Source: Coptis chinensis (lineage: Eukaryota; Streptophyta; Magnoliopsida; Ranunculales; Ranunculaceae). Taken from it: DNA of 64,000 bases. The translations under genes were made by a program, and so were the position numbers. The notes under the pieces are model-generated. The model saw only the letters and a list, made by a program, of their open reading frames with translations, had not been told where the DNA came from and ran no database searches. The DNA lies in assembly GCA_015680905.1 (NCBI GenBank), contig CM027384.1, positions 63,681,001 through 63,745,000 of the forward strand. The letters are read 5' to 3'. Below, piece by piece: positions 12,781-62,260 of this stretch; the first letter of the stretch is position 1, and every line of letters starts with the position of its first letter.

Positions 12781-12814
12781 TGAAAATTGGGCTGTTCGGA
12801 TGAATTTTCCTTGT

Positions 12815-13739: not shown

Positions 13740-13741
13740 TT

Positions 13742-15229
13742 TGATAACCCGAAAAAACTCAATTAGATTACTCTAACCTTATTCTTACGGTATCAATGAT
13801 TTATTTCCTACTCTCACATATATATTCATGCAATATATAGAGTACGGAATCGTTCCACTCTTAACTCTCAAGACTTAAACAAATTCAACTAATCAAACCC
13901 AAAGAACAATGGTGAGAGTGATGTGTTATATGAAATATCTATTCTATGATTATACTACGGATTCAATTTATACTAACAAGATATAATAATTAAACTACAA
14001 AAAATACTAACTAGACTCTATGATAAGGAATTAGGGGGGATTGAATCACTTTAACTCTACTTAATCTACTAACAAAGAACTGTCGCACTCCAAATTGAAA
14101 TGTTATCGCATAACAATTGGTAAATCTAATCCCTAACTATTCATGGCAATCTCTACCAAATAATAACTAGCATGTGAAGTATTAAACCCATTCTCATGGT
14201 GAACTAATTACTTCTAGAATTGAATAGATTATGAGGGGGCTAATTCTACGCTAACAAAATCAAGTCTTCATCAAGGCTTCCTCAACCCCTCTAATGGAGG
14301 GTTAGCCTAGAGTCATTAAACTATCATTTCTCATGAAATCTAAACAAGACATAATATAAAGATTTGAACTTTACTTGTTTAAACTCAATTCGAAACTACT
14401 CATGCAATAATTGAATTAAACTAATAATGACAAGTAATTGAATCTAAGGATTTAAGCTAATAAGTAAAGAAATTGAACAAGATTATCAAGAACACTAATT
14501 TATTTATCTAATGAAATCAATAACAATAATTTAATACTGAATTTAAGGCAAGAATAAAAACTAATTAATTAATCTAAAACTAGATCTAGAACTAAGGTTT
14601 AATGGCTACTTTTCTTATTCTAACCTAATTTATTTTCTAACCTAACTATCTACCATTAACAAAGAACTAAGCTTTTGTTTTTATACATCCAGATCCAAAA
14701 ATCGTGCATGGGCTTGGAGCCATGTTTTGGGCCAGAGAATCAGGCCCAAAACCCAATTCTTTCAGTCCAAAAAGGCCTCTTCAGCTGCAGTTGACTTCGA
14801 CAGACTTTTCGTCCACTTTTTCTCCTCTGATTGGGCCAAGGCTTGAACCATTAGAAAGCTCTTTCCGAGCTGGTCGTTTTGACGTAAGGTAGGCCCAATT
14901 CCGAGGTCTGAGTCCAAAGATATGGTCTTTGGAAGTTATGTTGACTTTGTGCACTGTTTCTGCCTGCGTGGACTTTGACTTTTCATCTTTTGACCGGGCT
15001 TTACAGAGGCTTTGTCTTCTTGAATCTTGGCCTTTAATCACAAAACTCCTTAGCAACCGACCTTTGCTTCTTTATCTCGCTAAAGTGGCACATTTCTGCA
15101 CATAATGGACTTTGAAGCCTGAAATGTATAAAAACACGTAATCAGTATTAACTCTTACTTATTATTCACATAATTGGTCTAAAAGTACGATTGTTAAGGG
15201 GTTAAAACTACAGTTTTGGGCTCTTATCA
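13742..15229 (-). repeat. E1 5' LTR (right copy)
   Basis: 1488 bp against 1478 bp for the left copy, same TG...CA ends. Differences are scattered one-base indels and few substitutions. Confidence 0.92.
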
Positions 15230-20880: not shown

Positions 20881-22210
20881 TGATAAATGTAAAAACAGTA
20901 GTTTTACCTACTCTTAACTAATTATTCTATGAATAAGTAAAACTAAAGCTATTTTACGCTATATGATCAAAGTTATCTACTCTCGATTATCATGCAATAT
21001 GTGGAGTAGATAATTCATTCCACTTTTAGTTTATTTAGAAGTAAGTTTCGCTAGTTTAATCGATTCTAACAAAATTAATGAGAGTAATGGATTGTGATTA
21101 TACTAATATGGTAATTGAACTAATTAAATTGTTCTAACTTATACTAAGGCAATTAAATACTAAGATGTGAATATGGAGAAGAGATTAGGGGGATCTGATT
21201 CCACTTTGATTGATTCCTAATATGCTAGTGTAAATTATTACAATCCTAACTAATAAAGATTAAGTAATTGATCCCTAATTATTCATGGCAATCTCTACCA
21301 ACTAATAATTAGCATGTGAGGAAATTCAACCCATTCTCATGGCGAATCAACTAACCTACTAGAGTAAAACTCTTAAAAAGCAATAATCCTAACTAATACA
21401 TCAAGTCTTCATCAAGCTTCATCAAACCCCTCTAATGGAGGTTTAGCTAGAAGTCATTAGACTATCATTATTAGAAGAATAAGAAGAAGACATAATGAAG
21501 AACAATAACTTGGCTTTTATTAATCTAATGGAAGAGAGTCTAAGACTTAAAACTATATTAAAGACTAAGTATTGAATAATCAACTAACTTAAAATTAATG
21601 AAAGAGTTATATGAATTAAATTCTAGGTAGCTAAGAGTTATGCCTTAGTCCTCTTTATATAAGAGAGGGCTCGGTTTACAATTTCGTACATGGGCTTTGG
21701 AGCCATATTTTGGGCCCTGAAATCAAGCCTAAAACCTAATTACTTAAGTCCAAAAAGGGTTTCTCTGCTGGAAATTACTAAAATAGCCTTTTTGTCCACT
21801 TTTTCTCCTCTGATTGGGTCAAGTCCTAGACCATTAGAAATCTATTTCCAAGCCAATTGTTTTTACATATAATAGGCCAATTCCAAGGTCTGAGTCCAAA
21901 GATACGACTTGCGGAAATTATATTGACTTTTATGCTCTATTTTTGCCCGCGTTGACTTTGACTTTTCAGCTTTGATCGGGCTTTAAAAAGGTTTTTTCTC
22001 CTTGAATCTTGGCCTTAGTCATAGAACTTCTTAGCAACCAACCTTTGCTCCTTTATCTCGCAAAAGTGACATATTTCTTCTCATATTCGACTCCAATACC
22101 TGAAATACACAAAAACACGTAAACAGTGATAACTCTTATTTATTATACACATAATTGGTCTAAATGTAATGATATTAAGGGGTTAAAACTACAATTTTGG
22201 GCTCTTATCA
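20881..22210 (-). repeat. E2 3' LTR (left copy)
   Basis: 1330 bp, starts TGATAAATGTAAAAACAGTAG and ends GGGCTCTTATCA. It shares blocks with the E1 LTR (GCATGGGCTTTGGAGCCAT and TTCCAAGGTCTGAGTCC), so the two are related subfamilies. Confidence 0.9.
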
Positions 22211-22250
22211 AACCACCCCCAAATAGCATTTTGCTTGTCCTCAAGGAAAT
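22211..22250 (-). other. E2 terminal hairpin plus polypurine tract
   Basis: Sense strand: TTTCCTTGAGGACAAGC, AAAATGCTATTTGGGGGTGG, TT, then the LTR. Same module as E1. From 22251 to 23770 lies non-coding 3' region collinear with E1, including a pyrimidine-rich tract at 22915-23210. Confidence 0.8.
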
Positions 22251-23777
22251 ATGAGAAATTAAACTAAGTGACCAAAAATTGTGTTCTAACTAATCTCGTT
22301 TCGCCGAGTGCGATTGCATTGACCATATACAATAAGGCCTTAAACCACTAAGAATTCCCTAGTGGACGAGTTATAGCCTCGTGAGAGTTTTCTAGAGAAG
22401 ATACTCACAAACTTCATCTATACTATAACGACTAAGAAATAAAATTACTGTTTCCTACTTTATTCTCAGATATCTATACATCTCACTAGCAATGAGTACA
22501 GAATAACCAATTGAAAATCTAAGCTAATACGTGCATAATAATCAATCATCTACTGATAAACATATATATAATGAACTATGCTATGAAATGCAATAACAGA
22601 TCCGTTTTTGAAACTTTGGAATATCGTCCTTAAGTAGGTCCTTACATATATGTCAAGACAAAAACACTCTGATTTTTTCACTCAAGTTTCGCTCACTCCA
22701 GTGCGCAGTGGGCACACTTTACCTTACAATCTCAATGACACACAAGGAAGTCGAAGTTGATCAAACATATCTGCCACTTACTATCACACTAACTTATTCC
22801 TACTTGAGCTAGAGGTGTTGCGGGGATTAGGTGATGGTTTAAGAAGGAAGGAAATGGATATTCAAAAAGGACAAATCTAAGATAATAGAGTCTTCATATT
22901 ATGTAACTAGAGAAAACCTTGTTCTTACTTTGCTTCTACACTTTGTTTCCATCCTTAGCCATTTTTTTCTTTTTCTTTTGGCTTTTGACTCCATTGATTA
23001 TGTTTTTGAAGTTTTAACTTTTTATTTTATTTAATTACTTTTTATTTTATTTTTTTCTTTGGATGGAAACTTTCTTTTCTTTTCTTATTTGAAGCAACTA
23101 ACAAATTCTTGGTTTCACAGGTCTTTCTCTTTTCTATTCTTCATTTCATCTCTATTCTCAGACTCATTCAAAAATGGGTAGGCTGATTTTTATTTTTATT
23201 TTGTTTTGTAAAAGGGTAAAAAATTTGCGGTATATAAAAGGCTAAAGAAAGGCTCAAAGGGGCGACTAACGGAAAATAATTTCATAAGGTTTGAATTTCT
23301 AGCTATATCGATCCAAAAAGGGCCTAAATTCTCGCTTAGGATATGGTATAGTGATCAAGCAAGTGGACGTGTGATTTCTCTATTCAGAATTTACTTCTCC
23401 CTTGTGTCATTTCTCAAATATTTCACTCATATAAGGCTTTATGCTATATTCTCACAGGATTTGTAGAATAAATACTTTAGCCTAGATTTCAGAAACTTAC
23501 TGCCAATACAAACATAGATGCTCATGCAATATATTTATGGAAAGATGCAATCATTATTACCTACATATTAACCTAAATTTCTAAAAACTATTCTAATTTA
23601 AAAGCTAACATGAAACTTCTAGATTAATATCATCATGGAGAAAGAAACAATACCAATATTCCTACGTTTATAGCATAAACTTTTTATTTATATTTTTGAA
23701 TTTTTTTACTAGAAAATAAGTGCATATTATACATGTATTATCCTAATATGTGCTTTAAATTACGCGTGTTTCTATGT

Positions 23778-23818
23778 CACCCCCAAACAAAAATATATTT
23801 TGTCCTCAAAGTATAGAA
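23778..23818 (-). other. E2 internal hairpin plus polypurine-like module
   Basis: Sense strand: ACTTTGAGGACAAAATATA then TTTTTGTTTGGGGGTGAC, just 3' of ORF B and about 1.57 kb upstream of the terminal module, as in E1. Confidence 0.6.
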
Positions 23819-24031
23819 ATAAGAAGGGTAGGAAATACCATGGAAACGCGTGAAAAGTTAAGAACACCTGCAAAACAAATTTAGAACATACTAATATAGA
23901 TAATAAAATCATATGCAACTCTATATGAGTTCCACCCGTTATAGGGATAACAAAAATTAAATTGCTTGGGACATAAGCAGACACTAACAAAAAATATAAA
24001 AATAAAATAAAACTGACCTTATATCTAGCAT

Positions 24032-24953
24032 TTACGCGTTGGCCTCCTCTTCTATGAAGAATTGAGATTCCTTGGCATCCTGCCACACCATGATAATTTG
24101 ACAGGCCTCACGCCATTTGTCATCTACAATTGCTAACTTGTTAAGCGCCACTTGGTCGGATGGGGTGTAAAGGGCAACCCAATTAGGTTGTAGCCTCCAC
24201 CCCTGCCAAGTCATTGCACGGAATGAGCGTATAATGTAGTTGGTGGGTCTCATAATGTCGACCCCAACCCAATCTGTGAAACGGGCACAAAACGTACCCA
24301 GGAAAGAAACATAGCATTATTCAACAAACTAAGATAGGCATAAGAAGATACTTATGCCTCATACTATGGGCTTGTGCTAAACTAGAAACTAAGGTTCGGG
24401 GAATGTCATAGAGTATACGTCCCGTAGGTAGAGCAAGGAAGATGTTACAAGTGGCGTCATTCGCAGAAGAAAAACGTCATTCCCCTAAGATATTTAGCAT
24501 TATAAAGAACGTAACATTGCCCACGTTAAGGGACAAACTACCAAGGGATACGTTATATTGCCCTTGGTCCTCGACACGAAAAATCTCTGCCTCATAGGTC
24601 TCATGCAAAAACTCATAGTTGTAGACATACATATTATCTACCCAATAGCCCCATGAGTTTTGGATTTCAGCAGGCATAGACAGTCCAAGAGCAAAAACCA
24701 ACAAGAACTTGGTTAAGTCCATTGTTTCATTGCCAATAGTGACAGAGAACACTTGTTCTCCATCCGGTCTTTCAAAGAACTTACAATGCTCATAAAAATA
24801 AGTTGTAAGTGTAGGAGAATATAGTTCATCAGAGCTTACCATTAGAGGCTGCCATCCTGCCTGTATAATCACGTCGCAGAACCAAGATCCATACGTGTCA
24901 CTCGCGAACAAATCTTCCAAGGACATCTCCAGTATGATCTGAGGAGACTTCAT
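24032..24953 (-). pseudogene. E2 ORF B: plant-transposon-protein-like ORF
   Basis: The best copy of ORF B. ATG at 24953 (MKSPQIILEMSLEDLF), although the frame is open from 25004. Landmarks: GWQPLMVSSDELYSP at about residues 30-45, TTYFYEHCKFFERPDG, TMDLTKFLLVFALGLSMP, NNMYVYNYEF-like Tyr-rich stretch, then NVGNVTFFIMLNILGE with a stop at 24477. The C-terminal third (RPTNYIIRSF, RAMTWQGWRLQPN, VDDKWREACQIIMVWQDAKE) is in another frame to 24032. GW, FYxH and the hydrophobic block define the family I know as putative plant transposon protein. Function unknown; placed where Athila elements have envelope-like ORFs. Confidence 0.6.
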
Positions 24954-25054
24954 ATCAAACAAACACACTCTAGAATTCCTGGAAGTAACTGCAGAAGATC
25001 CCACAAATCAGAACTTGCATTGTGATGAGGTGAAGGCATGGGTACACTTCAGAT

Positions 25055-25175
25055 AGCCTATACAAAGGCGCAGGCGCGCTCTAGTTTGGCAAGATTTCCA
25101 GTACTTTGGGGCGCTTTGAGTATAGGCACAATAAAGGCGCGCTCTGAGTATAGGCACAATAAGGGGTGTGCGTGC
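25055..25175 (-). promoter_or_regulatory. Leader block upstream of E2 ORF B, homologous to the gag leader
   Basis: Sense strand has TACTGGAAATCTTGCCAAAC and AGAGCGCGCCTGCGCCTTTG, matching TACTGGAATTCGTGTCAAGC and AGAGTGTGCCCGCGCCTTTG in the 5' leader of the same element (about 38268-38310). A 31-bp tandem duplication (TGAGTATAGGCACAATAA, twice) lies at about 25113-25168. It sits about 110-220 bp upstream of the ORF B start codon. From 25236 to 25775 the sequence is non-coding spacer with a G-rich run in sense direction near 25590-25600. Confidence 0.6.
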
Positions 25176-25775
25176 TTCATGTATGAGAAGTGCTATGAAG
25201 TGAAAGTGCAAGGAAAAATGAGAGGTGCAACGTGAGAGGTGTGATGTTAAGTTGAGAGTGAACCCTGTATTTATAGAGGACTATTTTCTAAGTTCCACAA
25301 GTTGCCCAAATAGTTAAGGCAACATGATGGAAAAAGAACTTTTCTAAATCCAAAATAGAAACAGACAAGATCCATACTCCAAAACCAAACCAATAGCTTT
25401 TTGGCTGGAATTAAAATAGCAATCATCTAATTACGACTCCTTGAGATTGCACCAAACAACACTAGCTAATTCTAGCTACACCAATTTAGCAACATACTCA
25501 CATAAACCGATCACTATCAAGTAGGCAATAATATTTCGAAAAAAAAAATACGTGGATATGATTAGAGGCATTTCTAAATAAATAAGTCCACCCCCAAACA
25601 AGTTGGAAGGGTGGGATTCACGATACAAAACATAGCATATGTCGGAATTTAAAACAACTTCAAATATAAAATAACAAATACAAAATTCAATATTAACTAC
25701 TTAACTAAACAATTTGGAATCAAAATCTACTAAAAATAGGGAAAATAATCTTAACACAACAATAATACAATAAAA

Positions 25776-26910
25776 CTAGCCATGAGACGAAGATGGGCCA
25801 GAGTTATCCGTCCTGCGCTGACGACAATCATGCCTCCCAGATTCATCAGAAGAAGAACCCTCGTGAGGTGGCAAGCGTCGTAGAACTTCTACTTGAAATC
25901 TTTGTTGTTGCTCCATAAATGTATTCATGGTTTCCCCGTGCTCATTATCACACTGGACGAGAATCTCCATGTTAGCGTAGAGATCCTTATAACCATCAGC
26001 TAGCAACTAAAACTTGGTCTGAAGCTCGACTTGGTTACGGATAATGTTACCCTGCCTCGTCTGAATCTCCTCATACTGAGTATGGATAGTTCGTAGTCCA
26101 CGATGTAGTAAGGAGACACGGGCTACATCCGTAGTAGCCCTTTCCCAAACTCCGGCATCAAAACATGACGTGTCATCCTCCTCCTCCTCATCTGATTCCC
26201 TCTCAGCAGCCAAAACATCAGGCACATTCCACCTTTTCTTAATACATTCCTTCTAAATACGTGCAGTCGCATGCACCTTCAATTTGATCCTATCAGTCTT
26301 CGGAACACAGCCCCATAGCATCATAATCTTAGTAATCAATGTAGGTAAAGGCGTGGTATATACACCAACTGATCTAATCTCACTTAGCAAAAAGTCGAGG
26401 ACACAAAAATCATACCTCTTCTTCTTAAGGATCCAGAGAACATGTAGGCAATTCGTATTAACGTCACTCACTTTCATGGAGCCAATAATATTCCTACCAA
26501 CTCACTGAGCGACAGCCAACTGGTTCTTTCTCAGAGACAACTATCGAACACAATGCGAGCCAGCATTGTACTGTCCTTCCAATACGGTCTCAGTCATCAA
26601 AGGACCAATCCCACCAAACTGAGATTCCTTCAGTGTGTGTACGAGTGGCCTTTGCCTAATGCCAAGAATCTCAGACAACACAGCTCTATCCAACTCTCTC
26701 CTACTATCACCCACCTTCATAAAAACCCGACGACTCTCAGTCTACTTCTTCTTATAAAAATTATATACAAAATTGGTGTGATAAAAATCATTTGTCGAAT
26801 ACCACAACTTTTGCCACTTCCGACTAATCATCTCATTACCGTAAAAGGGTGAGAATTTATTAAAATCAAAAACTTGTTATGGAAGAATCTTGGGTTATGT
26901 TGGAGCCATG
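25776..26910 (-). pseudogene. E2 ORF A: plant-transposon-protein-like ORF with coiled-coil tail
   Basis: ATG at 26910 (MAPT, then a stop, PKILP) aligns with MARVLKIVPKQNF of E3 ORF A. Same-gene landmarks are SRKWQKLWYSTNDFYHTNF, KKKRYDFCVLDFLL and LITKIMMLWGC, equivalent to VTRIMQHWG of E3. Next comes an acidic segment (ESDEEEEDDTSCFD), then a long Gln/Glu-rich coiled coil (TIHTQYEEIQTRQGNIIRNQ; MNTFMEQQQRFQVEVLRRL) and a hydrophilic Ser/Arg tail ending at 25776. At least five stops are present. The layout matches E4 A1/A2 and E3 A. Confidence 0.55.
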
Positions 26911-27540
26911 GTTTGGATTTCAAAAATTGGGGTTAATGTAAAGAGGGGTTTAGTGAAAGGATCACTCGATCGAGATTTGAGTGTAGGTTGTGTGGTGGTT
27001 AAGGTGTGCACGCTTCAGCTTGTCTTGGTTGATTTGTTCGTGAGTTTAGGTTTGATGGAGGCGTGGAGAAGAAAGAAGAAAATGCGTTGGGGTTTAAAAG
27101 GGTGTCACGTGCGGGGGACGTCACCACGTAGGGTTTAGTTTGTTGGGCCTAAGCCCAAAACAATACAGATAATACATATCTTGTCTCATGCCTTGAATAT
27201 CTTAAAACTGAAATACCCGATTCGTTAACGGCCCGATTTTTGCGAATGACCTATGAAAACGATCATCAAAGAGAGTATAATCAAATGATCTATAAAAAAA
27301 ACTCAAATCTAACCGTGGCTGATATATAAGAAAATGGAAACGCCTCGAAGTGCGTGAATGACATAAGTTATGTGATCAAAAGAAATCTAAATTCATAAAT
27401 AGTGTCAACCCGAATCAAAATATGACTAAACGGCATAAACAACAAGAATAGGAAGTTGAGTGATCAAGAATGGAAAGACCAAACACCCCACTTTCAAACA
27501 AATTTTTGAAAACAGGGTTTAGAAAATTTGTTTAAACACA

Positions 27541-27571
27541 TAGGTCTTTTAAAGTCAGATTACCGAGACTT
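27541..27571 (-). other. ORF-A upstream motif, E2 copy
   Basis: Sense strand: AAGTCTCGGTAATCTGACTT, then TAAAAGACCTA. It lies about 650 bp upstream of the ORF A ATG. A decayed G-rich run (GTGGGGTGTTTGG) is 50 bp further upstream. From 26911 to 27540 the sequence is ORF A leader and spacer without another gene. Confidence 0.55.
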
Positions 27572-27840
27572 GCTAGATTACTATTTTTATGGTTTTAATA
27601 TTTTTTTATTTTTTATGAATAAGTTTAATATAAAGGAAAACAATAAAGCAATAAAAACATAAAGCACTCCATAGAGAAACATGACTAAAAAACTGAGCAA
27701 ACATGCAAGAGTGGAAAGCATAAATTATGTTAAACGTGGACTTAGGATCCGGTACTTACAGCCACACACTCCAAAGGGAGGGCCCGGTTACCTGAATGGT
27801 GCACTCACCAATATATGAAAATAAAAGGAAGTACACCAAA

Positions 27841-28490
27841 TATCAAAGGTCAGTCCTCATACACAGGGTCCTGTAAAAGGACCTCCTCCACTACTGAGGA
27901 CATTAACTCGTGAAAATGTTTAAAATGTTAATCATTAACTTGAAAGATATTGTTGTCCTTGGGATTTACCAAGGTGATTGCCCCGTAAAAGGTGACTTCA
28001 GTAACCATAAAAAGACCAGACCAACGGGTTTTTAACTTCCCAGTGAAAATATGCAAATGGGAGTTGTAAAGCAAGATCTTTTGACCAACCACAAACTCTT
28101 TACGCAAAATTTGTTTATCATGAACACGTTTCATGTTAGCTTTATAATCCTTCGCGAGATCATAAGAATCGCTACGAATTTTTTCAAGCTCATTTAATTG
28201 TAATTTGCACTTGACACCTGCCTCATCCATATTGAAGTTAAGGCTCTTTATAGCCCACATAGCACGGTGCTCCAATTCAACGAGCAAGTGACAGGAAAAA
28301 GATAAATAAAACCGTAGGAAACAGGAAAAGGACCCATGAAATCAATGCCCCAGACATCAAAAATTTCTACCACCATAATGGGATGTAAATGCATCATATT
28401 ACGTTTAGTGATACGCCCAAGTTGTTGGCAGCGAACACACGTCTTGCAGTTAACCTGGGCATCTTTAAAAAGGGTAGGCCAATAAAAACC
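27841..28490 (-). pseudogene. E2 integrase with catalytic core deleted
   Basis: The N-terminal zinc domain is present: His residues in [13 protein letters not shown] (just upstream, 28520-28560) and Cys pair in CKTCVRCQQ. Next is GIDFMGPFPVSYGF, which carries the first catalytic Asp. At about 28290 the sequence jumps to the conserved C-terminal part: VELEHRAMWAIKSLNF, KLQLNELEKIRSDSY, ILRKEFVVGQKILLYNS, LKTRWSGLFMV. The second Asp and the Glu of the DDE triad are missing, roughly 150-180 residues by family comparison. TTTTCCTGT occurs twice around the junction. A TAA lies just before the zinc domain. Integrase inserts the cDNA; this copy cannot work. Confidence 0.75.
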
Positions 28491-28493
28491 ACA

Positions 28494-29072
28494 TTACAAA
28501 ACTTTAGCTGCCGTTTTCATACCACTAAAATGGCCACCACACTCTTTGTCATGGCAGAAGGATAAAACCTCATTATATTCCCACTGAGGGATACAACAAC
28601 AAATAATCTGATCCACACAATACTTAAAAAGGTAGGGCTCATCCCAATAGTATAGCTTAACTCTGGCCAAAAACTTCTTACGTTCATTTCTTGACCAAAC
28701 ATCAGGAATAATATCAGAAGCTAAATAATTCACAATGTCGGCATACCAAGGTGTAGAAAAAATATAATAAAGATGTTCATCAGGAAAAGAATCAGGTATC
28801 GACTCAGAATCACTATCACTGTCGTTTGTTAGTCTAGATAAGTGATTGGCAACTACATTTTCGACCCCTCGTTTATCCTTAATTTCTAGGGTAAACTCTT
28901 GTAGGAGAAGAATCCATCGGATCACTCTCTGTTTAGCATCCTTCTTGGCGAGAAGGTACCTAAGAGCTGCGTGGTCAGTGTAGACTAAGGTCTTAAAGCC
29001 AACCAAATAAGGTCGGAACTTATCTAAAGCATAAACCACAACTAAAAATTCATTTTCAATAGTAATGTAATT
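28494..29072 (-). pseudogene. E2 RNase H domain
   Basis: Continues from the RT after a TGA at 29073-29075 ([15 protein letters not shown]). Conserved segments: [67 protein letters not shown]. These are the RNase-H-like portion of Ty3/gypsy pol, which removes RNA from the RNA-DNA hybrid. Open over 181 codons except for the stop at its N-terminal edge. Confidence 0.8.
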
Positions 29073-30174
29073 TCATTGAGCATCGTTTAAAGTCTTACTA
29101 GCATAATAAATAACAATGGACTTATCATCTAGTTTCTGGCCTAACACAGCACCAACAGCATAATCGCTAGCGTCGCACATAAGCTTGAAAGGTTTAGACC
29201 AATCAGGAAGCTGTATAATCGGTGCAGATGTTAAAGCGGCTTTTAAAGTTTCAAAAGCATATTTGCAGTCATAATTAAAATCAAATATGGCATCTTTTAA
29301 AAGCAGATTAGTTAAAGGCCTAGCTAATTTTGAAAAATCCTTGATAAAACGCCTATGATACCATGCATGGCCTAAAAAGGCTCTAATGTCACAAACAGCC
29401 CGTGGTATGGGTAGAGACGCTATTTTATCTAATTTGGCCTTATCTACTTCTATGTCGTCACTAGATACAATATGACCTAGCAGGATTCCTTTTTTAACCA
29501 TAAAATGACATTTTTCCCAATTCAAAACTAGATTCTTCTCCTCACACCGTGTCAACACCTTAGAGAGGTTAGACAGGCAGTCACTGAAAGAGTCTCCATA
29601 GATAGAAAAATCATTCATGAAAACTTCCATAAAGCGCTCCACCATGTCACTAAATATATGAAGCATACACCGCTGGAAGGTACTAGGAGCATTATAAAGG
29701 CCGAAAGGCAATCGTTTATAGGCATATGTTCCAAAAGGACATGTGAAGGTAGTCTTGTCTTGGTCATCAAGATCGATAATGATCTGAAAATAGCCATAAT
29801 AGCTATCTAAAAAATAATAATAAGTATGACCAGCTAGACGTTCAAGCATCTGATCTATAAAAGGTAAAGGAAAGTGATCCTTTCGTGTCATGGTGTTAAA
29901 GCGTCTGTAATCAATACAAATCCTCCATTTCATAGGAACTCGTGTGGAAACATATTCACCCGCAGCATTACGAACAACGGTAATCCCCAATTTTTTAGGG
30001 ACTACGTGAATAAGACTAACCCATTCGCTATCGGAGATGGGATATATGATACCCGTATCGAGTAACCGTAAGACTTCTTCCCTTACCACTTCTTTCATGG
30101 CAGGGTTCAAGCGACGCTGAGGTTCGCGTGAAGTCTTTGCATTATCACCAAATGTATGTGATGCGTGCATACAC
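29073..30174 (-). pseudogene. E2 reverse transcriptase, N-terminus removed, FMND active site
   Basis: Starts at CMHASHTFGDNAKTSREPQ, then LNPAMKEVVREEVLRLLDTG, IIYPISDSEWV, RICIDYRRFNTMTRKDHFPL, LPFGLYNAPSTFQRCM, VFMNDFSIYGDSF and LGHAWYHRRFIKDFSKLARP. The order and wording are Athila-like. The YxDD-type motif reads FMND: the first catalytic Asp is Asn (AAT, 29613-29615), so the enzyme would be inactive even if expressed. Upstream, the LINE replaces the linker between protease and RT. About 365 codons are open. Confidence 0.85.
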
Positions 30175-31066
30175 CATGGCATTGACTTTTGGCAAGAAAT
30201 CCAATTGGGTAAGCTTCCAAAATTTTGCACTCATTGCATAATGGTTGGCCACCTAACTGCTGAATGTCGAAGACTCCAATTAGAAAAAGGGAAGGACCAA
30301 GTTCCAAGCCAAGAGAATGCAAATGCCCCAGCTGGCTCAGCACATGTACTCTCTAAAAGCCAGTAGCGCAGAATTAAAAGACGAAATCGTGTGGCCGAAT
30401 GAAGACCACGAGGAAATACAACAACACTAGAAGATGTTACGGAAACACCAGCAGCCACAGAAGTATTGGTGGAAATGCCCATTCCACAAAGTATATCTCG
30501 AACTCCAGGTGCCTGTGTAGTGGAAAGAAATACCCCAAGTTCACAAGGGACTGCCCTAGAGGAGACTATTCCTCCACTGACTGTAGCGGTTTTGGAAACT
30601 CTCCCAGACCCAATAACAGATATTGTAGCTATTCCAAGGCAGGCCGGCCCACATAGTGAATCCCCCTCAAACTTGCAATGCTTTGGTCCAATTTGTCTCC
30701 GACAACTCCACTGTATTGCACGAAGAATCGATCCAACTCCTAGAAATGGCAATGGAAACTAACTTTCCTATCGCTATAGGGGAAGAAATTCTTTATGCTA
30801 CGGATCATAATCGATTCTCTGCTCTTAAAGAGGATTCTCAAAGCGTTCTTGATTCAAGTGAAATGTCTGAAGAAGAAACAGAGCACTTTCAAGATGAAGT
30901 TTTATTGTTTTCAAACCTACTCCTCTCCCCTCCTCCAAGTACACCTTCGGGTGTTGTCACAAGGGCAGGCAAAAGGAATGGCCAAGTTCCCAAGTCCTTT
31001 GGTGCTATCCCCAATCAAAGGATAGCACCTGAGGATAGTATCTCAGCAAAGTATGAAGCTTGGTAG
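30175..31066 (+). pseudogene. LINE ORF1, C-terminal part with CCHC knuckle
   Basis: FWQEIQLGKLPKFCTHCIMV then GHLTAEC: a C-x2-C-x4-H-x4-C knuckle preceded by the LPKFC context typical of plant L1 ORF1 proteins. The RNA-binding domain normally in front (DUF4283) is missing. The downstream Pro/Thr/Glu-rich region has two stops before 30420 and a frameshift near 30660, then NRFSALKEDSQSV, a typical ORF1 tail, to a stop at 31064-31066. Confidence 0.7.
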
Positions 31067-31135
31067 TTCTTCCAAGCAGCCGAACAACATCAAACGAAGG
31101 GAACAGCTCAAGGGGTCGAAGAACAAACGTCACTG

Positions 31136-32206
31136 ATGACTACACCTATCTATGTGTGGAATGTGAGAGGAGCCAATGATGACCAAAAGGCAAAAGAAAT
31201 CAATAAAGTTATAATAGACAAGAAGCTGAGTGCGTATTGTTTGCTTGAAACGAAAGTTCGGCAACACCAGTACGAGCGCATTCACAATATGTGTTGCCCA
31301 CTCTGGGAACATATGAATAATTATAGCAAAGATCCCTCAGGGCGAATCTGGATATGTTAGGACCCATATAAAATGTATTTTGCTAAGCTTATGGAGTCTG
31401 ATCAATATATTCATTGTAAGGTTACTCATTTACCAAACAATGAAGTGTACTTTCTCACTGTAGTCTACACAAGAAATGCCAAAGTTGAAAGACTGAAGTT
31501 GTGGCAGGACATTAGATCTCTCCACAGCTCTATCAATCTGCCTTGGAATGTAGTCGGTGACTTTAATAACATTACTAATGCAGAGGAGAGAAGAGGGGGG
31601 GCGCCCATGCATCCGAGAGAAGCAAGTGACTTTATTGAATGTTTAGAAGCTTGTGGCCTGTCAGATTTATCTTTTAATGGCTTCTTTTTCGCATGGAGTA
31701 ATAAGGTGGATGGACCTGGCAGGATTATGACAAAAATAAACCGAAGCTTGGTAAATAGTCTATGGTTGGCTCAGTATCCATCATCTAAGGCAGAATTCCT
31801 CCCACACGGCATTTCTGATCATTCCCCTATTCTCATAGAGTGAAAAGTGCCAAGCAGGAAAACTGGCCCATTTAGATTCAAAAGTTACTAGGTGGAGCAA
31901 CCGGAATTTCATGCTATCCTAGAAAAGGTGTGGCAAATTCTTGTTTATTCCAATCCCATGTATATTCTTATGCAGAAGCTAAAGCTTTTGAAGGAAAGGC
32001 TCAAGCCTTGGGCACGGAAGAATTTTTCTGACCTCCATGGTAGAATTATAAGAGCTAGGGAGGAGCTATATGATATCCAGAAGCTTTTGCAAGATTCCCT
32101 TTTCAATTCACACCTTGGCCAAAGTGAAAAATCTGCTCTTAAAAAGTACCAGACTCTTGCTAGTGCGGAAGCTTTTGAGATTCAGCTTAAGGAAAAGGGT
32201 GACTAG
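31136..32206 (+). pseudogene. LINE ORF2: apurinic-type endonuclease domain and linker
   Basis: Conserved points are the Asn in WNVRGAND, Glu in LLETKV, NVVGDFNNI and SDHSPI near the end, as in L1 endonucleases that nick the target DNA. Stops interrupt it: TAG 31358-31360, TGA 31841-31843, TAG 31889-31891, TAG 32204-32206, all in one frame. The linker (LKPWARKNFSDLHGRI, ALKKYQTLASAEAFEIQLKE) is as expected upstream of RT. Confidence 0.75.
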
Positions 32207-33639
32207 ATGTTGGAAGGTGACAAGTGCACTGCCTATTTCTTCAATATCCTTAAAGAAAAAAGAGCTAGAAGTGGCATCTGATCTCTCCAAGATGATTAAG
32301 GAGACACAGTCCAAGGACAAGAAGACATTATTAAGATGATTGTCGAGTTCTATAAATGGATGCTTGGCACAAAAGGGGAGGAGATCTCTAGTCTAGTTTT
32401 CTTCCAAATCTTACCAGTCAAGACCACAGTCAATGCTTCATTTCCTTGGACTCTGAGGTGACAGAAGATGAAATAAAGCAAGCACTCTTTGAGATGGAGG
32501 ACAATAAAGCACCTGGCCCAGATGGATATACTCCTTTTTTCTTTAAGAAATGTTGGGCTACTATTGGTCTTGATTTTATTTTGGCAGCTCAAAATGCTTT
32601 TAGATTTTGTAAACTCCCCAGAGGGGTCAATGCAACCCTTCTTTGTCTAGTTCCCAAAATAATTAACCCATCCCAGACAGAAGATTTTATTGCCTTATGT
32701 AACACTATATATAAGTGCATGTCTAAAGTTCTTACAAATAGACTGAAATTGGTGATTAATGATTTGGTTTATCCTAATCAATCAGCTTTTATCCCTTGCA
32801 GGACCATACAGGATAACATCTTACTTTCTCATGAGCTTCTACGAGGGTATGATAGGAAACATGGCGCTCCGCGGTGCTCTATCAAAGTAGACATCCGGAA
32901 AGCTTTTGATATGGTTAGCTGGGATACTATACAAGTTATTTTGCATACCTTCAAGTTTCCCCCCCTTATGTGCAAATGGATCCAGATGTGTGTTTTCTCT
33001 CCTTCTTATTCAGTGATGATCAATGGAGCCGCGGAAGGATTCTTCCCTGGTGCCCGAGGCTTGAGACAAGGAGATCCTTTATCTCCGTATCTGTTTGTTT
33101 TGGTTATGGAAATTCTCAGCTGTATTCTCTTCAGAAGCATCAATGAGAAACAAATCCAGTTTCACCCTAAATGCAAGAGAGTGAAACTATCACACCTTAT
33201 CTTCGCAGACGATGTCCTTCTCTTTTGTAAAGGGGATAACAACTCTATACTTGCGGTTAAAGAATGCCTCCTGGAGTTTGGAAGGGCAACTGGACTACAC
33301 ATCAATACTCACAAGACCACCATACTTACTGGTACCCTTAACCATCAAGATGCTCAATCACTTGCTTCTATATTAGGAGTTGAATTGGTAAAACCCCCTG
33401 TCAAGTACTTGGGCCTTCCTCTGATCTCGGGAAGATTTGGCATAAGAGAATGCCAACCTTTAATTGAACGAGTCACCCAAAAGGTTACAAATTGGAAAGC
33501 CCAACAACTCTCTCATGCAGTAAAAGCCATGTTGATCACGTCAGTTCTTCTATCCTTCCATATATATTGGGCTAGAACGTTCATTCTGCCTAAAATGGTT
33601 CTGGATCAAGTTGAGAAAATTTGTGCACGTTTTCTATGA
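32207..33639 (+). pseudogene. LINE ORF2: reverse transcriptase domain
   Basis: Open for 397 codons from 32446 after a frameshift in 32207-32446. Motifs: KAPGPDGYTPFFFKKCW, NQSAFIPCRTIQDNILLSHE, KVDIRKAFDMVSWD, GLRQGDPLSPYLFVLVMEIL, and the catalytic FADDVLLF near 33205, intact. This is the enzyme used in target-primed reverse transcription. TGA at 33637-33639 truncates it. Confidence 0.85.
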
Positions 33640-35236
33640 TCCTCTATTGGATTGTAGAAAGCCTTTCATCATGCTAGCTGGTATACCATGAGTAAACCAA
33701 AATATGAAAGAGGACTTGGATTTGTAAATCTTCAAAGATAGAACCGGGGAGCCTACTACAAATTAGTCTTCAAAGTAGCAATCAAAGAGGAAACTATATG
33801 GGTGGATTGCACTTGGAAACACCACATAAAACAACAATTGTTCTGGACTATGACAACTCCGAAGGACTGTTCTTGGTCTTGGAGAAAAATCCTAGATGCC
33901 CGAAAGGATGCTAAGAAGCTCATCAAGTATATGATCGCTAATGGTGAGAATACGCTGCTCTGGCATGATATCTGGTGTGGCAGCTCTCCTTTCCTGTTTA
34001 ATGTCGATGCCTTGTCAGCGTGGCAGTTTCCTATGGATGCCAAGGTTAGTTATTTGTTAGATAATGGTAATTGGAATTACCTCCTCATGCTGTCTTCTAA
34101 TCTCAAGACTGAAATTCTCACTACCAGCATCTATAGAAATCTCCTACAAGACAAGATAGTGTGGACTCCCCACCAGAGTGGTCTCTATACCTCTAGTAGT
34201 GCCTACACCATTCTCAGCCCAGCTGGAAACAAAGTGAGGTAGTATAACTTTGTGTGGGGAAAATGGGTTCTACCAAGGCATTCCTTCACATGTTGGCAGC
34301 TCTTCTCTAACACTATACCTACCCAAGACCGTCTGGTGCGAAGAAAAGTCATTTCTCACTCTACATGCTGCTTATGTAATAGCAGTAGAGAACACTCTAA
34401 GCATCTTTTCTTTGAGTGCCCTTACTCCTAGCAGACCATATCCAAGATTAAAGAGCTACTCTGTATCTCTACTGATGCTAGATCTTCTAATCGAGAATGG
34501 TCATCCATCATCAGGCTTTGCAAAAGGCATGAATTAGGGGAAGTGTACAAAGTTTACTTATGCGCTGCTGGGGACGCCATCTGGAAAGAGAGAAACAGGC
34601 AACACTTTCAAGGCTCTAGCAGGAATGCATTGGAGCTGTTCTACAAACTGGAACGAGACCTCAAAAACTACCTAGTAGTCCTAAAACCACAGGTAAAGGA
34701 TTCTTTGGATGCCCGAGCTCTGGGTACCAGAATAGGGCTCAACCTGCAGTTCAAGTTCCCTGTGTCTACTGGCTGCTCTTGGGATCCACCACTCAAAAAT
34801 AGAGTTAAGCTCAATACTGATGGAAGCTTAAGCAGTAATGGTGCTGGACATGGAGGGGCAATACGAGACAGCCAAGGTCAAGTGGTTGCGGCTTTCACAG
34901 GAAAAGGCGGAATGCAATCAGTGCTATTCCCAGAACTTTTAGCTATTGACGTCGGGTTAAAAAGATGCATCCATGAGAGGATTCTAAAAGTGGAAGTTGC
35001 GTCAGATTTGCTGAGGGCAATAAATGCTATTAATAAGTAAGAGAAGCCCCCTTGGTACTGCCTGGACTTAGTCACTACCATCCAAAATATAAGTCTCCTC
35101 TTTGAGTACATCTCCTTCAGTCATGTGGTACGAGAGACGAATAGGGCAGCAGACTATTTGGCTATTATTAGCCCATCACAGGATGCACATAATGTAATTT
35201 CTTTTTTCTTTGTCCCCCGATCAGCCCCTTCATAGT
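33640..35236 (+). pseudogene. LINE ORF2: zinc-binding region and RNase H domain
   Basis: Fragments in several frames: SAWQFPMDAKVSYLLDNG, then a Cys/His region (SFTCWQLFSNTIPTQDRLVR followed by CCLCNSSREHSKHLFFEC), then RNase H (VKLNTDGSLSSNGAGHGGAI with the Asp, LFPELLAIDVGL with the Glu). A TAA at 35038-35040 precedes the last conserved piece FSHVVRETNRAADYLA. The RNase H makes this a plant L1 of the type that acquired a C-terminal RNase H. Confidence 0.75.
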
Positions 35237-35341
35237 ATTGTGGAGGAGGATTCCCAAGGAACAACCTATGTAAGAGTTTCTTAAGCAATACAACAGGTGA
35301 GGGCCTGCCAATCCCTAGCTTAACAAAAAAAAAAAAAAAAA

Positions 35342-36348
35342 CTTAAGCACAGGGGTGGGAGGAATGGATAAAAAGGATTTTGGAGGGTCCTCGTCTTGAG
35401 TAGTGAAGACTTGTTTAGGTAAGAGGTCTTCAAACTCGGAAGATAGATCAACATAAGGATCTAAGATAGGAGTAGACTCGAAAAGGGCGTTGACTTCCTC
35501 TAAGTAAGAGTCATCGTCGAAGTCGGAACTACCAAAGGAAAGGAATTGGTGCATCTGATTTTCTGGAAATATATTGTTGAAATAATCTTGAGCTAAGCTC
35601 TCAATCATGCTAACTTCCCCATCCATAGATGAATCGGGTAACTGTTTCATCATTTTGAAACATTTACCTCAACAGAAAGATGGCCAAAGGACATGGACAT
35701 CGAATCATCGCGACAGTTTATGAGTGCGTTGGCAGTAACCAAGAAGGGACGCCCTAAAATGATAGGAACATATTCATTAGTGACTTCTGTGTCTTGGATA
35801 ACGAAGTCTGCTGGGTAGTAAAAATCTTGAACTTTGACGAGCACGTTTTCAACAACACCCTTAGGATACTTAATAGAACGGTCAGCTAATTGCAACGTCA
35901 TTTTAGTTTGTTGCATCTCTTGGAGACCTATTTGTTTATATAGATAGTAAGGGAGTAAGTTAACACTCGCCCCCAGGTCTAATAGAGCAGTCATCGTGTG
36001 GGTATCTCCCAAGGTGCATTGTACAGTAGGACGACCAGGGTCCTTGTACTTAACGATTCCATTATGTTCAAATAGAGTTGGAAACTGTTTAGTTAAAAAG
36101 GCGTCTTTTGGTATATTTGTTTTCCGTCTAGTAGTGCACAACTCTTTCAGAAACTTAGCATGTTGTGGTAACTTTTTAATAGCGTCAAGAAAAGGTAGGT
36201 TTATAGTTAGATTTTTAAAAACTTCCCTAATCTCATCAAAATTGGTATCCTTGTGTAACATGGCTAGTCTCTGGGGAAACGGTGGGTTCTCTCTATATTT
36301 AGCATATAGATCAATAGGAGTTTTAACCCTGGCCGCTTTTCTCTTGGG
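35342..36348 (-). pseudogene. E2 protease region of pol
   Basis: Reading leftwards: IDLYAKYRENPPFPQRL, FKNLTINLPFLDAIKKLP, KFLKELCTTRRK, then the aspartic-protease segment TALLDLGASVNLLPYYLYKQ, with DLGA as in Athila proteases, and VPIILGRPFLVTANALINC. Protease matures the Gag-Pol polyprotein. The frame is open from 36261 to 35650; the following linker (SSEFEDLLPKQVFTTQDEDP) overlaps in another frame and ends at PPTPVLK against the LINE poly(A). Confidence 0.8.
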
Positions 36349-37987
36349 TTAAGGTTCGACTGGTACCTCTACAGGAGTAAGATCTTCAGTTACGACTTCG
36401 GTATCTAGTAAATTATTAGGTGTAATGACCACTGGTGGGGTAACAACTGGCATAGTTACGGCGTTATCAACCACTCTGCCATAACGGAGAGTGGTGATGG
36501 CATTTAACTCACCTATATTTATATTTTCATTACTAGTATTACCGGTTACTTCAAAGACTGTGTTTGGCATTTTAGGATTAGATATAGCTTGACCTGGAAA
36601 CACACATTTTGGTTGGGCTTTCTCTTGGGCTAACTGTTGTATGGAATGATTAATAGATTGTAAAATCTGTTGGTTAGCCTGCATGTAGGCTTCGAAACGA
36701 TCCGGTTGTGAAGGTGTAGTGGCCACAGGTGGTGTGACTGGAACTATCTCACGTTGATTATTAACGGGTGGGTTGTGATAGTTATTATTAACTGGAACGA
36801 TACCTCTATTAGCATTATAATTATTGTTATAATTATTATAATTACCTTGTCCTTGTCTTTGTGGAGCTTGGTTGTAATTGTTCGCTGGCCTAACATTTTG
36901 ATTATTAAACCCTGGAGGTGTAACTTGTTGATTATTTTTCCAACTGAAGTTGGGGTGTTGTCTCCAAGGTTGGTTAGGTTGGTTATTTATGAAACAAACA
37001 TTATCCGGCTATACTGGTGGTTGTTCATAGAGGAGAGGACAATAGGAGTCGGAATGCTCAAGGCTGTAACAGAAATTACATGGAAGAATGTTGACATTCA
37101 TGACTGGAGTAGGCTTATGTTGAATAGAAATGGCTTCTTCCTTTTTAGTGAGAGATTTGATTAGAATTCTAAGCTCGGGATCAAATTTAACCTCAAACAT
37201 ACTGGCAGCCTTGACTGTGGAAGAAGAATTACTGGACCGGGGGATGTCATTGACCCCCCAGTTATTTTGACGCTTAGATTGATCTTCTAAAAACCTATAA
37301 GCCTCTGAGGCACCTTTACTAAGGAAACTCATCCCAGTCATTATGTCAAGAACCTCTTTATGGTGATGTAAAAACCCTTTGAAAAAGGCACGAACAAGCA
37401 TGTCTTTCGCAAAGTTATGATGTGGACACTCGATAAGAAGATCAATGAAACGGTTCCACACCTCTAAAAAGGATTCATGAGGATTCTGGCGGAAGAAATG
37501 AAACTTTTGAAGCATTTCATGTCTTCAGAGGTGGGTAAAACTGTTCCATGAACAATTGAACGAGGTTGGCCTATGAGTCCACAGAATTAGGTGATTAGGC
37601 AGTTAACCAAGATGATGCCTTATCGGCTAGGGTGAAAGGAAACACCCTAAGTTTAATTTGTTCCGAACCTACGATAGGATGATGAAATATGGAAAGAACT
37701 TGTTCAATCCTACGCATATGCTGATAAGGCTTCTCGTGGTCTAAACCATGAAAAACCGGTAACAAATTAAATATATTCGGGGGAATTCGAAAATCCCCCA
37801 CTGGGTCTACAAGAACGATGCAAGACTTAGGGCTATTGTTAAGGACCTTATAAAAGTCAGAGAGAGGACTCTCTGTTTCTTCAGCCATTAATGCAGGTGT
37901 AGTGTGTGGTATTCTAGATAGGCATGTGCGTTGACGCTTATGATAAATAACAGAAGATGGTTTACTAGTACTAGACCTTAATCTCAT
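36349..37987 (-). pseudogene. E2 gag (Athila-type), broken
   Basis: ATG at 37987, basic N-terminus (YHKRQRTCLSR), GDFRIPPNIFNLLPVFHGLD, then stops near 37595-37540. The capsid core is FFRQNPHESFLEVWNRFIDL, then CPHHNFAKDMLVRAFFKGFL. One knuckle follows (CNFCYSLEHSDSYC). A long Asn/Gln/Tyr-rich low-complexity stretch (36760-36990) and PDRFEAYMQANQQILQSINH end before a stop at 36349-36351. Gag would build the particle and bind RNA. At least four stops and one frameshift. Confidence 0.8.
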
Positions 37988-38040
37988 GCAAGGCTAAGGC
38001 CAATATGAATATAAACCACTAACAGCAGTCAAAACAACCC

Positions 38041-38230
38041 TTATATGCTAGAATTAAAAACTCCTCTGACAGAATAGGCCATGAGTGGAAGAAGGAGTAC
38101 CTGAATGCCTCCTTGCTATGCATTTGAATAGCGTCTTGTATACGCAATCTTAGTGTATTTACGAAGTTGGAAACACTGAATAACTTGAACGAAGAGAGAT
38201 GGAACTAACCTGCGAAAAATTAGGCTTTCG
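38041..38230 (-). other. Conserved leader block 5' of gag (E2 copy)
   Basis: Collinear with 12600-12780 in E1, although the LTRs of the two elements differ. It includes GAAGGAGTACCTGAATGCC and AATAGCGTCTTGTATACGC. Confidence 0.55.
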
Positions 38231-38244
38231 TCAGAAGGGGTGCG

Positions 38245-38370
38245 GGTGGGCTTGGAAACAAGCTTACAAAGGCGCGGGCACACTCTTGCTTGACACGAAT
38301 TCCAGTAACTTGAGGGCGTGCGCGCTCACAAAATAGAGTACCTAGGGCGCGGGCGCACTCAAGGTAGAAT
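38245..38370 (-). other. GC-rich leader block 5' of gag (E2), partner of 25055-25175
   Basis: Three GCGCGGGC- or GCGTGCGCGC-type repeats spaced about 40 bp apart, with intervening TTCCAGTAACTTGAGGG (+ strand). It is the sequence re-used upstream of ORF B. Confidence 0.55.
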
Positions 38371-38489
38371 TTTGAAAAAAATTATATTCTGGACCAAATA
38401 AACACAGTTAGAACCAAACAAGGGTGGGTGGGTTTAATGGGGTTTTGGTAGGATCGAAAATACAAAGGGAAACGAATCTAAAATTAACT

Positions 38490-38507
38490 AAGATGGCAAC
38501 GACGCCA
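38490..38507 (-). other. E2 primer-binding site (degenerate tRNA-Asp type)
   Basis: Sense strand TGGCGTCGTTGCCATCTT, two bases inside the LTR. The first 12 bases fit a plant tRNA-Asp primer with one change. Confidence 0.7.
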
Positions 38508-38509
38508 TT

Positions 38510-39817
38510 TGATAAATGTAAAAACAATAGTTTTACCTACTCTTAACTAATTATGCTATGAATAAGTAAAACTAAAACTATTTTACCCTATATGATCAAA
38601 GTTATCTACTCTCGATTATCATGCAATATGTGGAGTAGAGAATTTGTTCCACTCTTAGTTTATTTAGACGTAAGTTTCCCTAGTTTAATCGATTCTAATA
38701 AAATTAATGAGAGTAATGGGTTGTGATTATACTAATATGGTAATTGAACTAATTAAATTGTTCTAACTTATACTAAGGCAATTAAATACTAAGATGTGAA
38801 TATGGAGAAGGGATTAGGGGGATTTGATTCCACTTTGATTGATTCCTAATATGCTAGTGTAGATTATTGCAATCCTAACCAATAAAAATTAAGTAATTGA
38901 TCTCTAATTATTCATGGCAATCTCTACCAACTAATAATTAGCATGTGAGGAAGTTTAACCCATTCTCATGGCAAATCAACTAACCTACTATAGTGAAACT
39001 CTTAAAAAGCAATAATCCTAACTAACACATCAAGTCTTCATCAAACCCCTCTAATGGAAGTTTCGCTAGAAGTCATTAGACTATCATTAATAGAAGAATA
39101 ATAAGAAGACATAATGAAGAACAATAACTTGGCTTTTATTAATCTAATGGAAGAGAGTCTAAGACTTAAAACTATGTTAAAGACTAAGTATTGAATAATC
39201 AACTAACTTAAAACTAATGAAAAAGTTATATGAATTAAATCCTATGTAGATAAGAGTTATGCCTTAGTCCTCTTTATATAAGAGAGTGCTAGGTTTACAA
39301 TTTCGTGCATGGGCTTTGGAGCCATATTTTGGGCCCTGAAATCAAGCTCAAAACTTAATTACTTAAGTCCAAAAAGGGTTTCTCTACTGGAAATTACTAC
39401 AACAGCCTTTTTGTCCACTTCTGCTCCTCTGATTAGGTCAAGGCTTAAACCATTAGAAATCTCTTTCTGAGCCAGTTGTTTTGACATATAATAGGCCCAA
39501 TTCCGAGGTCTAAGTCTCAAAGATACGGCCTGCGGAAATTTTGTTGACTTTTATGCTCTATTTCTGCTCACGTTGACTTTGACCAGGCTTTAAAAAGGCT
39601 TTTTCTCCTTGAATCTTAGCCTTTAGTGATAGAACTTCTTAGCAACTAACTTTTGCTCCTTTATCTCGCAAAAGTGACATATTTCTTCTCATATTCGACT
39701 CCAATACCTGAAATACACAAAAACACATAAACAGTACTAACTCTTTTTATTATACACATATTTGGTCTAAATATAATGATATTAAGGGGTTAAAACTACA
39801 GTTTTGGGCTCTTATCA
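38510..39817 (-). repeat. E2 5' LTR (right copy)
   Basis: 1308 bp against 1330 bp for the left copy, with several short deletions (for example GACTTTTCAGCTTTGATC is shortened). Ends TGATAAATG ... CTCTTATCA. Confidence 0.9.
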
Positions 39818-56908: not shown

Positions 56909-56910
56909 AT

Positions 56911-62255: not shown

Positions 62256-62260
62256 ATATC

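What the first reader, a model, noticed from the sequence alone, without database searches (positions are those of the whole stretch)
25055..38370. The gag leader module is duplicated in front of ORF B
Seen in sequence: in E2 the sense strand upstream of ORF B (25055-25175) repeats, in order, the segment of the 5' leader at 38245-38370 (TACTGGAA...CTTGCCAAAC/GTGTCAAGC, then AGAGyGyGCCyGCGCCTTTG). E1, with a different LTR, has the same GC-rich block in both places (12815-12915 and 9600-9740). Inference: the 3' ORF carries its own copy of the genomic leader, so a subgenomic ORF B mRNA would start with the same RNA element as the gag mRNA. That could serve as an internal promoter, an initiation enhancer, or a second packaging or template-switch site. 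I know of no description of this for Athila elements.
Basis: partly seen in the sequence, partly recalled or inferred. Interest (0 to 1): 0.75.

Follow-up and report, generated by a model that had tools for sequence, protein, structure and literature searches.

The report
Duplicated leader cassette before retrotransposon gene
A family of plant retrotransposons carries the same short GC-rich box sequence twice, ahead of its first gene and, behind a conserved TATA box, ahead of its last gene, which suggests that the last gene has its own promoter and shares a control element with the first.

Summary
In E2, 54 columns of the gag leader (38318-38265) recur upstream of ORF B (25113-25061) at 80% identity. 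The E1 pair is weaker, but its two arrays are each other's best match in the window. In the host genome, 13 further elements were read at both sites; in 13 of 13, and in E1 and E2, the leader and ORF B arrays align better than each of 1000 shuffles. The unit is a ~130-bp cassette with GC-rich boxes typically spaced 33-42-32 nt at both sites; 80 of 81 boxes face the sense way. About 98 nt upstream of the ORF B copy lies a TATA box, present in 17 of 19 other E2-type copies and in 6 of 6 E1-type copies read. Three more distant ORF B copies in the window lack the cassette, so it is clade-specific. Conserved RNA structure was not found, so packaging and template switching gain no support. Best reading: an internal promoter makes an ORF B mRNA, and the cassette is a cis-regulatory element common to both 5' leaders. 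Closest precedent: Sirevirus repeated motifs in LTR and 5' of ENV. No function was tested experimentally.

The parts
38240..38365 (-). E2 gag-leader cassette (GC-rich boxes starting near 38360, 38327, 38285, with a decayed one near 38253)
25025..25185 (-). E2 ORF B cassette (partly decayed; one box within 3 mismatches, 25081-25067)
12800..12910 (-). E1 gag-leader array
9540..9830 (-). E1 ORF B array, the most CpG-rich 100-bp stretches of the window
25268..25275 (-). TATA box of the candidate ORF B promoter in E2 (TATAAATA)
9922..9929 (-). TATA-like box of the candidate ORF B promoter in E1 (TATTTAAA), aligned with that of E2
25306..25780 (-). Region upstream of the ORF B TATA box, conserved with E1 9963-10423 (492 columns, 62.8%)
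38204..38212 (-). Splice-donor consensus 3' of the E2 leader cassette (CAG, then GTTAGT)
12772..12780 (-). Splice-donor consensus 3' of the E1 leader array (TAG, then GTAAAT)
24480..24953 (-). Open N-terminal piece of ORF B in E2 (158 aa; broken further on)
9309..9476 (-). Open N-terminal piece of ORF B in E1 (56 aa; broken)
5391..15229 (-). Element E1 (LTRs 98.1% identical, target duplication CTCTT; no match to E2 gag, protease or RT pieces)
20882..39817 (-). Element E2 (LTRs 92.3% identical, target duplication AAAAT; holds a + strand LINE-like insert)

Best explanation
ORF B is a transcription unit of its own inside the element. A TATA box about 98 nt upstream of the first ORF B box directs an ORF B mRNA, so that the cassette lies in its 5' leader, just as the first cassette lies in the leader of the genomic (gag-pol) RNA. 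The cassette, GC-rich boxes facing one way and typically spaced 33-42-32 nt, is a cis-regulatory element that acts on both leaders and couples expression of gag-pol and ORF B. I lean to action on DNA, as a downstream CpG-rich protein-binding array. Shown: the duplication, the spacing, the orientation, the TATA box and its retention, and purifying selection on ORF B. Inferred: promoter use, the transcript start, the level (DNA or RNA) and any regulation.
For: Leader and ORF B arrays align beyond each of 1000 array-only shuffles in 15 of 15 elements. Box spacing 33-42-32 recurs at both sites, 80 of 81 boxes in sense; a single 130-nt ungapped register at offset 150-160 in 11 of 13 other copies. 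TATAAA in place in 12 of 13 plus 5 of 6 other E2-type copies; CTATAAAT and TATAAATA are the two best retained of 161 8-mers in the block, 12 of 13 copies. In 6 of 6 E1-type copies the same place reads TATTTAAA, TATAAAAA or TATATAAA. ORF B dN/dS is 0.38, 0.25 and 0.24 in three parts between E1 and E2. CpG observed/expected is 0.75-1.40 in the four arrays against 0.54 and 0.69 for the elements. Box spacings are near whole helical turns (arithmetic). RNA structure is not supported as the cause.
Against: No transcript data. The leader cassette lies about 0.9 kb (E2) or 1.8 kb (E1) downstream of the LTR TATA-like box, far for a DNA element of that promoter. The constant orientation would also suit an RNA element or plain copying. 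Copies were found by likeness to E2 (and, for E1-type copies, with a probe that included the TATA-like box), so part of the agreement is inherited or ascertained. TATA is missing in 2 of 19 E2-type copies. Three more distant ORF B copies lack the cassette. The helical phasing is one inherited arrangement.
Confidence: 0.5

Rival explanations
1. RNA-level leader element: the cassette acts without stable conserved structure in both RNAs, for example in translation initiation past upstream AUGs, export, or Gag binding.
For: Both copies lie upstream of a start codon and nearly all boxes face the sense way. The ORF B leaders contain upstream AUGs (three in E2, one in E1). ORF B arrays lean towards more stable folds: 6 of 15 have z below -1.5.
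Against: Mean folding z is -0.30 for leaders and -0.90 for ORF B arrays; alignment folding energies are reached by 8 and 21 of 100 column shuffles; in the window z is -1.04, -1.24, -0.47 and -0.29. No specific RNA partner could be tested.
Confidence: 0.2
2. Splicing: ORF B is expressed from LTR-started RNA by splicing from the leader donor to an acceptor before ORF B; the TATA word and the cassettes are exon sequences without promoter role.
For: A donor consensus lies about 35 nt 3' of the leader array in E1 (12778) and E2 (38210), and in E5 (17891); such strict sites number 3, 4 and 1 in the sequences scanned; 9 of 13 other leaders have a looser one. Splice acceptors have been predicted for Athila and splicing reported for Bagy2 (passages in PMC2829016 and PMC7264820).
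Against: It does not explain the TATA box kept in 17 of 19 and 6 of 6 copies. Acceptor-like sites before ORF B are not clearly enriched: 1 in E1 against 1.04 expected, 3 in E2 against 1.93, by a crude rule. 4 of 13 leaders lack the donor.
Confidence: 0.15
3. Inert duplication: a CpG-rich tandem sequence was copied once in an ancestor by template switching and has been carried along without function.
For: E2-type copies can inherit one event: leader against ORF B similarity (mean score 51) is far below leader against leader (123) and ORF B against ORF B (159). Arrays gain and lose units.
Against: Box spacing is retained at both sites; E1-type elements keep a CpG-rich array behind a TATA box in the same place, 5 of 6 with a box within 4 mismatches; 55 of 58 boxes in 254,747 fetched bases lie at the two sites.
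Confidence: 0.12

Closest known systems
Sirevirus repeated motifs (RM boxes and CpG islands; PMC2829016; abstract, passages and section 9 seen)
   Same: An element-specific CG-rich repeated motif occurs at a promoter-related place and again 5' of the ENV gene, forms CpG-rich islands, and was taken there as support for an internal promoter of ENV.
   Different: Sireviruses are Ty1/copia; their motifs are palindromic (CGG-CCG core) and lie in the LTR upstream of TATA. Here the element is gypsy-like, the box is not palindromic, lies in the leader 3' of the primer binding site, and the ORF B copy lies downstream of a conserved TATA box.
Grande gene23 of maize (accessory gene with its own promoter; passages in PMC7264820)
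   Same: A plant gypsy element with an extra gene between pol and the 3' LTR transcribed from an internal promoter.
   Different: gene23 is antisense; no shared leader cassette is mentioned in the passages seen.
Foamy virus internal promoter (passages in PMC7390438)
   Same: Two promoters in one element, the internal one serving a 3' gene; a common factor acts on both.
   Different: The two foamy virus promoters show little sequence relatedness, and the internal one lies within env; here the shared DNA is a duplicated cassette, and no transactivator is known.
Athila, Calypso and Diaspora lineage (passages in PMC1142308; Wright and Voytas 2002 not held)
   Same: Plant gypsy elements, most with an ORF after pol in sense; Diaspora too has a long leader (873 bp).
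   Different: Diaspora lacks the extra ORF; no duplicated leader cassette or internal TATA box appears in the passages and listings seen.

Membership tests
Athila-type LTR retrotransposon | LTRs with target duplication; gag, protease, RT and RNase H | tested here: met
   LTRs, 5-bp duplications, Pfam gag below its cut-off, aspartyl protease, RVT_1 and RNase H in E2; E1 lacks matches to the E2 gag, protease and RT pieces
Athila-type LTR retrotransposon | Sense ORF between pol and 3' LTR | tested here: met
   ORF B pieces, dN/dS below 1; no Pfam family
Athila-type LTR retrotransposon | RT phylogeny placing it in the Athila lineage | not tested
Sirevirus RM system | Ty1/copia element | tested here: not met
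   The RT reading frame runs directly into gypsy-type RNase H domains, then 28497-29072; the place of integrase was not tested
Sirevirus RM system | Palindromic CGG-CCG box in the LTR upstream of TATA | tested here: not met
   Box not palindromic; no box in the LTRs of E1 and E2; 80 of 81 boxes in one orientation
Sirevirus RM system | Box cluster 5' of the ORF after pol | tested here: met
Internal promoter (Grande or foamy-virus like) | Core promoter element upstream of the 3' ORF | tested here: met
   TATA box, sequence evidence only
Internal promoter (Grande or foamy-virus like) | Transcripts starting there | not testable with these tools
   No RNA data
RNA packaging or dimerisation signal | Conserved RNA structure | tested here: not met
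   an unstructured signal is not excluded

The most novel reading that the evidence does not exclude
These elements run a two-promoter programme like foamy viruses: the internal promoter makes ORF B early, and the ORF B protein (or a host factor it recruits) binds the same box cassette in its own leader and in the gag leader, switching on genomic RNA and itself. The duplicated cassette would be the shared target, and E1-type copies without most of gag-pol would keep it because it is needed in cis.
Probability: 0.1. Interest if true: 0.85.

Novelty: new variant of a known kind. Interest (0 to 1): 0.58.

Why it matters
How plant gypsy elements express the ORF after pol is unsettled: splicing has been predicted for Athila, and for Sireviruses an internal promoter was proposed but not conclusively identified (passages in PMC2829016). 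A conserved TATA box followed by a duplicated leader cassette gives a precise, testable site in a family with many copies (39 other ORF B places and 39 other leader places matched E2 probes, both lists capped at 40 scored candidates). If the boxes are binding sites, they offer a way to find what activates these elements.

Tried and rejected
Homogenisation of the two copies within each element: suggested by E1 against E2, but among 15 elements the element's own ORF B copy ranks first for only 3 leaders; a permutation of the centred score matrix gives 371 of 20000, and leader-leader and ORF B-ORF B similarities among 14 elements correlate at r 0.35 (21 of 5000). At most a subfamily-level effect, not corrected for relatedness.

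Homology continuing 3' of the cassette (seen by eye): the four leader against ORF B flank comparisons are reached by 110 to 911 of 1000 shuffles. Shared coding by upstream ORFs: frames differ by eye, not tested further. Conserved RNA structure. ORF B homologues: none at E 0.001 in the protein collection for the 158-aa piece, no Pfam family; the structure model is useless (mean pLDDT 33.5). Relatives in viral and prokaryote collections: no match to an RT piece or to primer-binding-site patterns; the five 16-base matches (L001-L005) were taken as chance and not studied. The bacterial promoter scan does not apply to a plant. E5: its leader aligns with the E1 leader in one scheme (0 of 500) but not clearly in the other (44 of 500), and leader against ORF B upstream in E5 gives only an A-rich match. 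CpG content alone is not specific: other stretches of the window also reach 9 CpG per 100 bp, and the E2 ORF B cassette is not among the 60 richest windows. A literature search with 13 bases of the box found two unrelated papers (listing only).

Rows dropped: of 39 other E2-type ORF B places, a 4.5-kb stretch 6.5-11 kb upstream was fetched for 39; 13 held a same-strand leader and were used, 3 held only opposite-strand partial hits and were dropped, 23 held none. That the two sites of a pair belong to one element rests on contig, strand and distance. Five more have a same-strand leader 5.8-16.7 kb upstream by coordinates alone, giving 18 of 39. ORF B segments of 6 further copies were read without leader. 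Of 39 other E1-type ORF B places (40 scored of 2712 candidates), 6 were fetched; the E1 leader exceeds each of 500 shuffles in 3 of these 6, the others at 2, 5 and 8 of 500. The E1-leader genome search did not complete.
Full report
What was claimed and what is there. The window holds two minus-strand LTR elements, E1 (5391-15229, LTRs 98.1% identical, target duplication CTCTT) and E2 (20882-39817, LTRs 92.3%, AAAAT). In E2 a 54-column segment of the gag leader, 38318-38265, recurs at 25113-25061 upstream of ORF B at 79.6% identity. Apart from the LTRs it is the only same-strand self-match of E2 at E 0.01. With both arrays dinucleotide-shuffled, 0 of 2000 reach the score in each of 3 schemes; the same holds for the E1 pair, whose score is lower (35 against 51). 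With long flanks the E1 pair is not above 200 shuffles. Searching the whole window on both strands, each of the four arrays has its sister as best partner in 2 of 2 schemes. The box GAGCGCGCCCGCGCC occurs 6 times within 3 mismatches, only in these arrays (0.06 expected). 22 of 55 GCGC words of the window lie in the four arrays.

The pattern in the genome. The window lies in an assembly of 935.6 Mb. The E2 ORF B segment matches 39 other places and the E2 leader 39 others (40 scored in each search, out of 334 and 1122 candidates). For 13 of the 39 ORF B places a same-strand leader lay in the stretch fetched 6.5-11 kb upstream; five more pair up by coordinates alone. In 13 of 13, and in E1 and E2, the leader and ORF B arrays align better than each of 1000 array-only shuffles. 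These copies were found by likeness to E2, so this shows that the duplication is ancestral to the family, not that it arose repeatedly.

Anatomy of the cassette. With 15 elements the plan is clear. Leaders typically carry boxes at offsets 30, 63, 105 and 137, ORF B segments at 188, 221, 263 and 295: the same 33-42-32 spacing, though few copies keep all four boxes within 3 mismatches. 80 boxes face the sense way and 1 the other. In three copies (33, 36, 37) the ORF B array has further boxes about 74 nt on, the length of a two-box unit. A 130-nt ungapped comparison finds one best register at offset 150-160 in 11 of 13 other copies (identity 0.46-0.65 against a mean of about 0.25); in copies 36 and 37 the best register is about one unit later, with the usual one second; E2 itself (0.48 at 179) and especially E1 (0.40, next 0.37) are weaker. 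In 254,747 bases of fetched DNA, 55 of 58 boxes lie at the two sites. The spacings are close to whole turns of DNA (3.1, 4.0, 3.0 at 10.5 bp per turn, recalled), which is suggestive only, being one inherited arrangement.

An internal promoter candidate. About 98 nt upstream of the first ORF B box lies CTATAAATA. TATAAA is in place in 12 of 13 paired copies and in 5 of 6 further ones. In the block examined, CTATAAAT and TATAAATA are the two of 161 8-mers retained in most copies (12 of 13); this block lay just outside the search probe. In 6 of 6 E1-type copies the same place reads TATTTAAA, TATAAAAA or TATATAAA: the box is kept while letters change, although here the probe included it. E1 and E2 also share 492 columns upstream at 62.8%. 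ORF B itself shows purifying selection between E1 and E2 (dN/dS 0.38, 0.25, 0.24 in three parts), so it is a real gene, although its frame is broken in both.

What the cassette does. Folding gives little sign of conserved RNA structure: mean z -0.30 for 15 leaders and -0.90 for 15 ORF B arrays (6 of the latter below -1.5), alignment energies reached by 8 and 21 of 100 shuffles. That weakens packaging, dimerisation and structured translation signals; unstructured RNA functions remain open. A splice-donor consensus lies about 35 nt 3' of the leader array in E1 and E2 and in the leader of E5, and in a looser form in 9 of 13 copies, so a spliced ORF B RNA is a serious rival; acceptor-like sites before ORF B are not clearly enriched. 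My preferred reading is a second promoter for ORF B with a cis-regulatory cassette common to both leaders.

Limits against generality. The window holds three more ORF B copies on the + strand: in E5 (40614), into which E2 is inserted; in E6 (3474), into which E1 is inserted; and a fragment at 1943. Their best box has 5, 8 and 8 mismatches in the 350 bp before ORF B, although E5 and E6 have TATA-like words there. E5's leader shows a weak likeness to E1's. Among the elements seen, the second cassette therefore marks the E1/E2 clade, and the leader copy may be the older one (inference). For E1-type relatives only ORF B sites were read (6), and the E1 leader matches 3 of them beyond each of 500 shuffles.

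Comparison with what is known. The nearest precedent is the Sirevirus repeated motif (PMC2829016; abstract, passages and section 9 seen): element-specific CGG-CCG boxes forming CpG islands in the LTR and again 5' of the ENV gene, taken there as support for an internal promoter that the authors could not conclusively identify. The present case has the same logic in a gypsy-like element, with another box in another place and with a conserved TATA box. Grande gene23 has its own promoter but is antisense (PMC7264820, passages). Foamy viruses pair an LTR with an internal promoter (PMC7390438, passages). Searches of the open library listed no title or abstract describing a duplicated leader cassette in Athila elements, and the passages seen of PMC1142308 and PMC11963269 mention none; most subscription papers, including Wright and Voytas 2002, are not held, so this is no proof of absence.

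Verdict.

Noticed in passing
16054-48327 (+): A third element, E5: LTRs 89.6% identical, gag at 18310, ORF B near 40614; E2 is inserted in it.
   Followed up: partly
3474-5375 and 15246-16054 (+): A further ORF B copy (E6) and its downstream region, split by the insertion of E1; the LTR at 16054 follows directly, as if two elements shared an LTR.
   Followed up: partly
12212-12467 (-): In E1, a 90-bp unit repeated 2.9 times that by eye encodes CCHC zinc knuckles, as if a Gag nucleocapsid motif had been multiplied in an element without most of gag-pol.
   Followed up: no
9363 (E1) and 24708 (E2): Identity between E1 and E2 jumps from 65.6% before to 81.8% after this point: a likely recombination breakpoint inside ORF B.
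   Followed up: no
12597-12798 and 38031-38230 (-): Leader block 3' of the cassette, 78.6% identical between E1 and E2, better conserved than much of their LTRs; candidate cis signal kept in gag-less E1.
   Followed up: no
24480-24953 (-), 3474-4250 (+), 8688-9110 (-), 40614-40895 (+): ORF B is a conserved protein family without Pfam match, 27-47% identical between elements in the N-terminal part; function unknown.
   Followed up: partly
59395-59849; 56143-56910 and 61488-62257: A higher-order tandem array (periods 38, 55 and 93 bp), and a 770-bp 98% direct repeat with its own 98-bp and 66-bp tandem units, near two PPR reading frames (54.2-56.2 kb).
   Followed up: no
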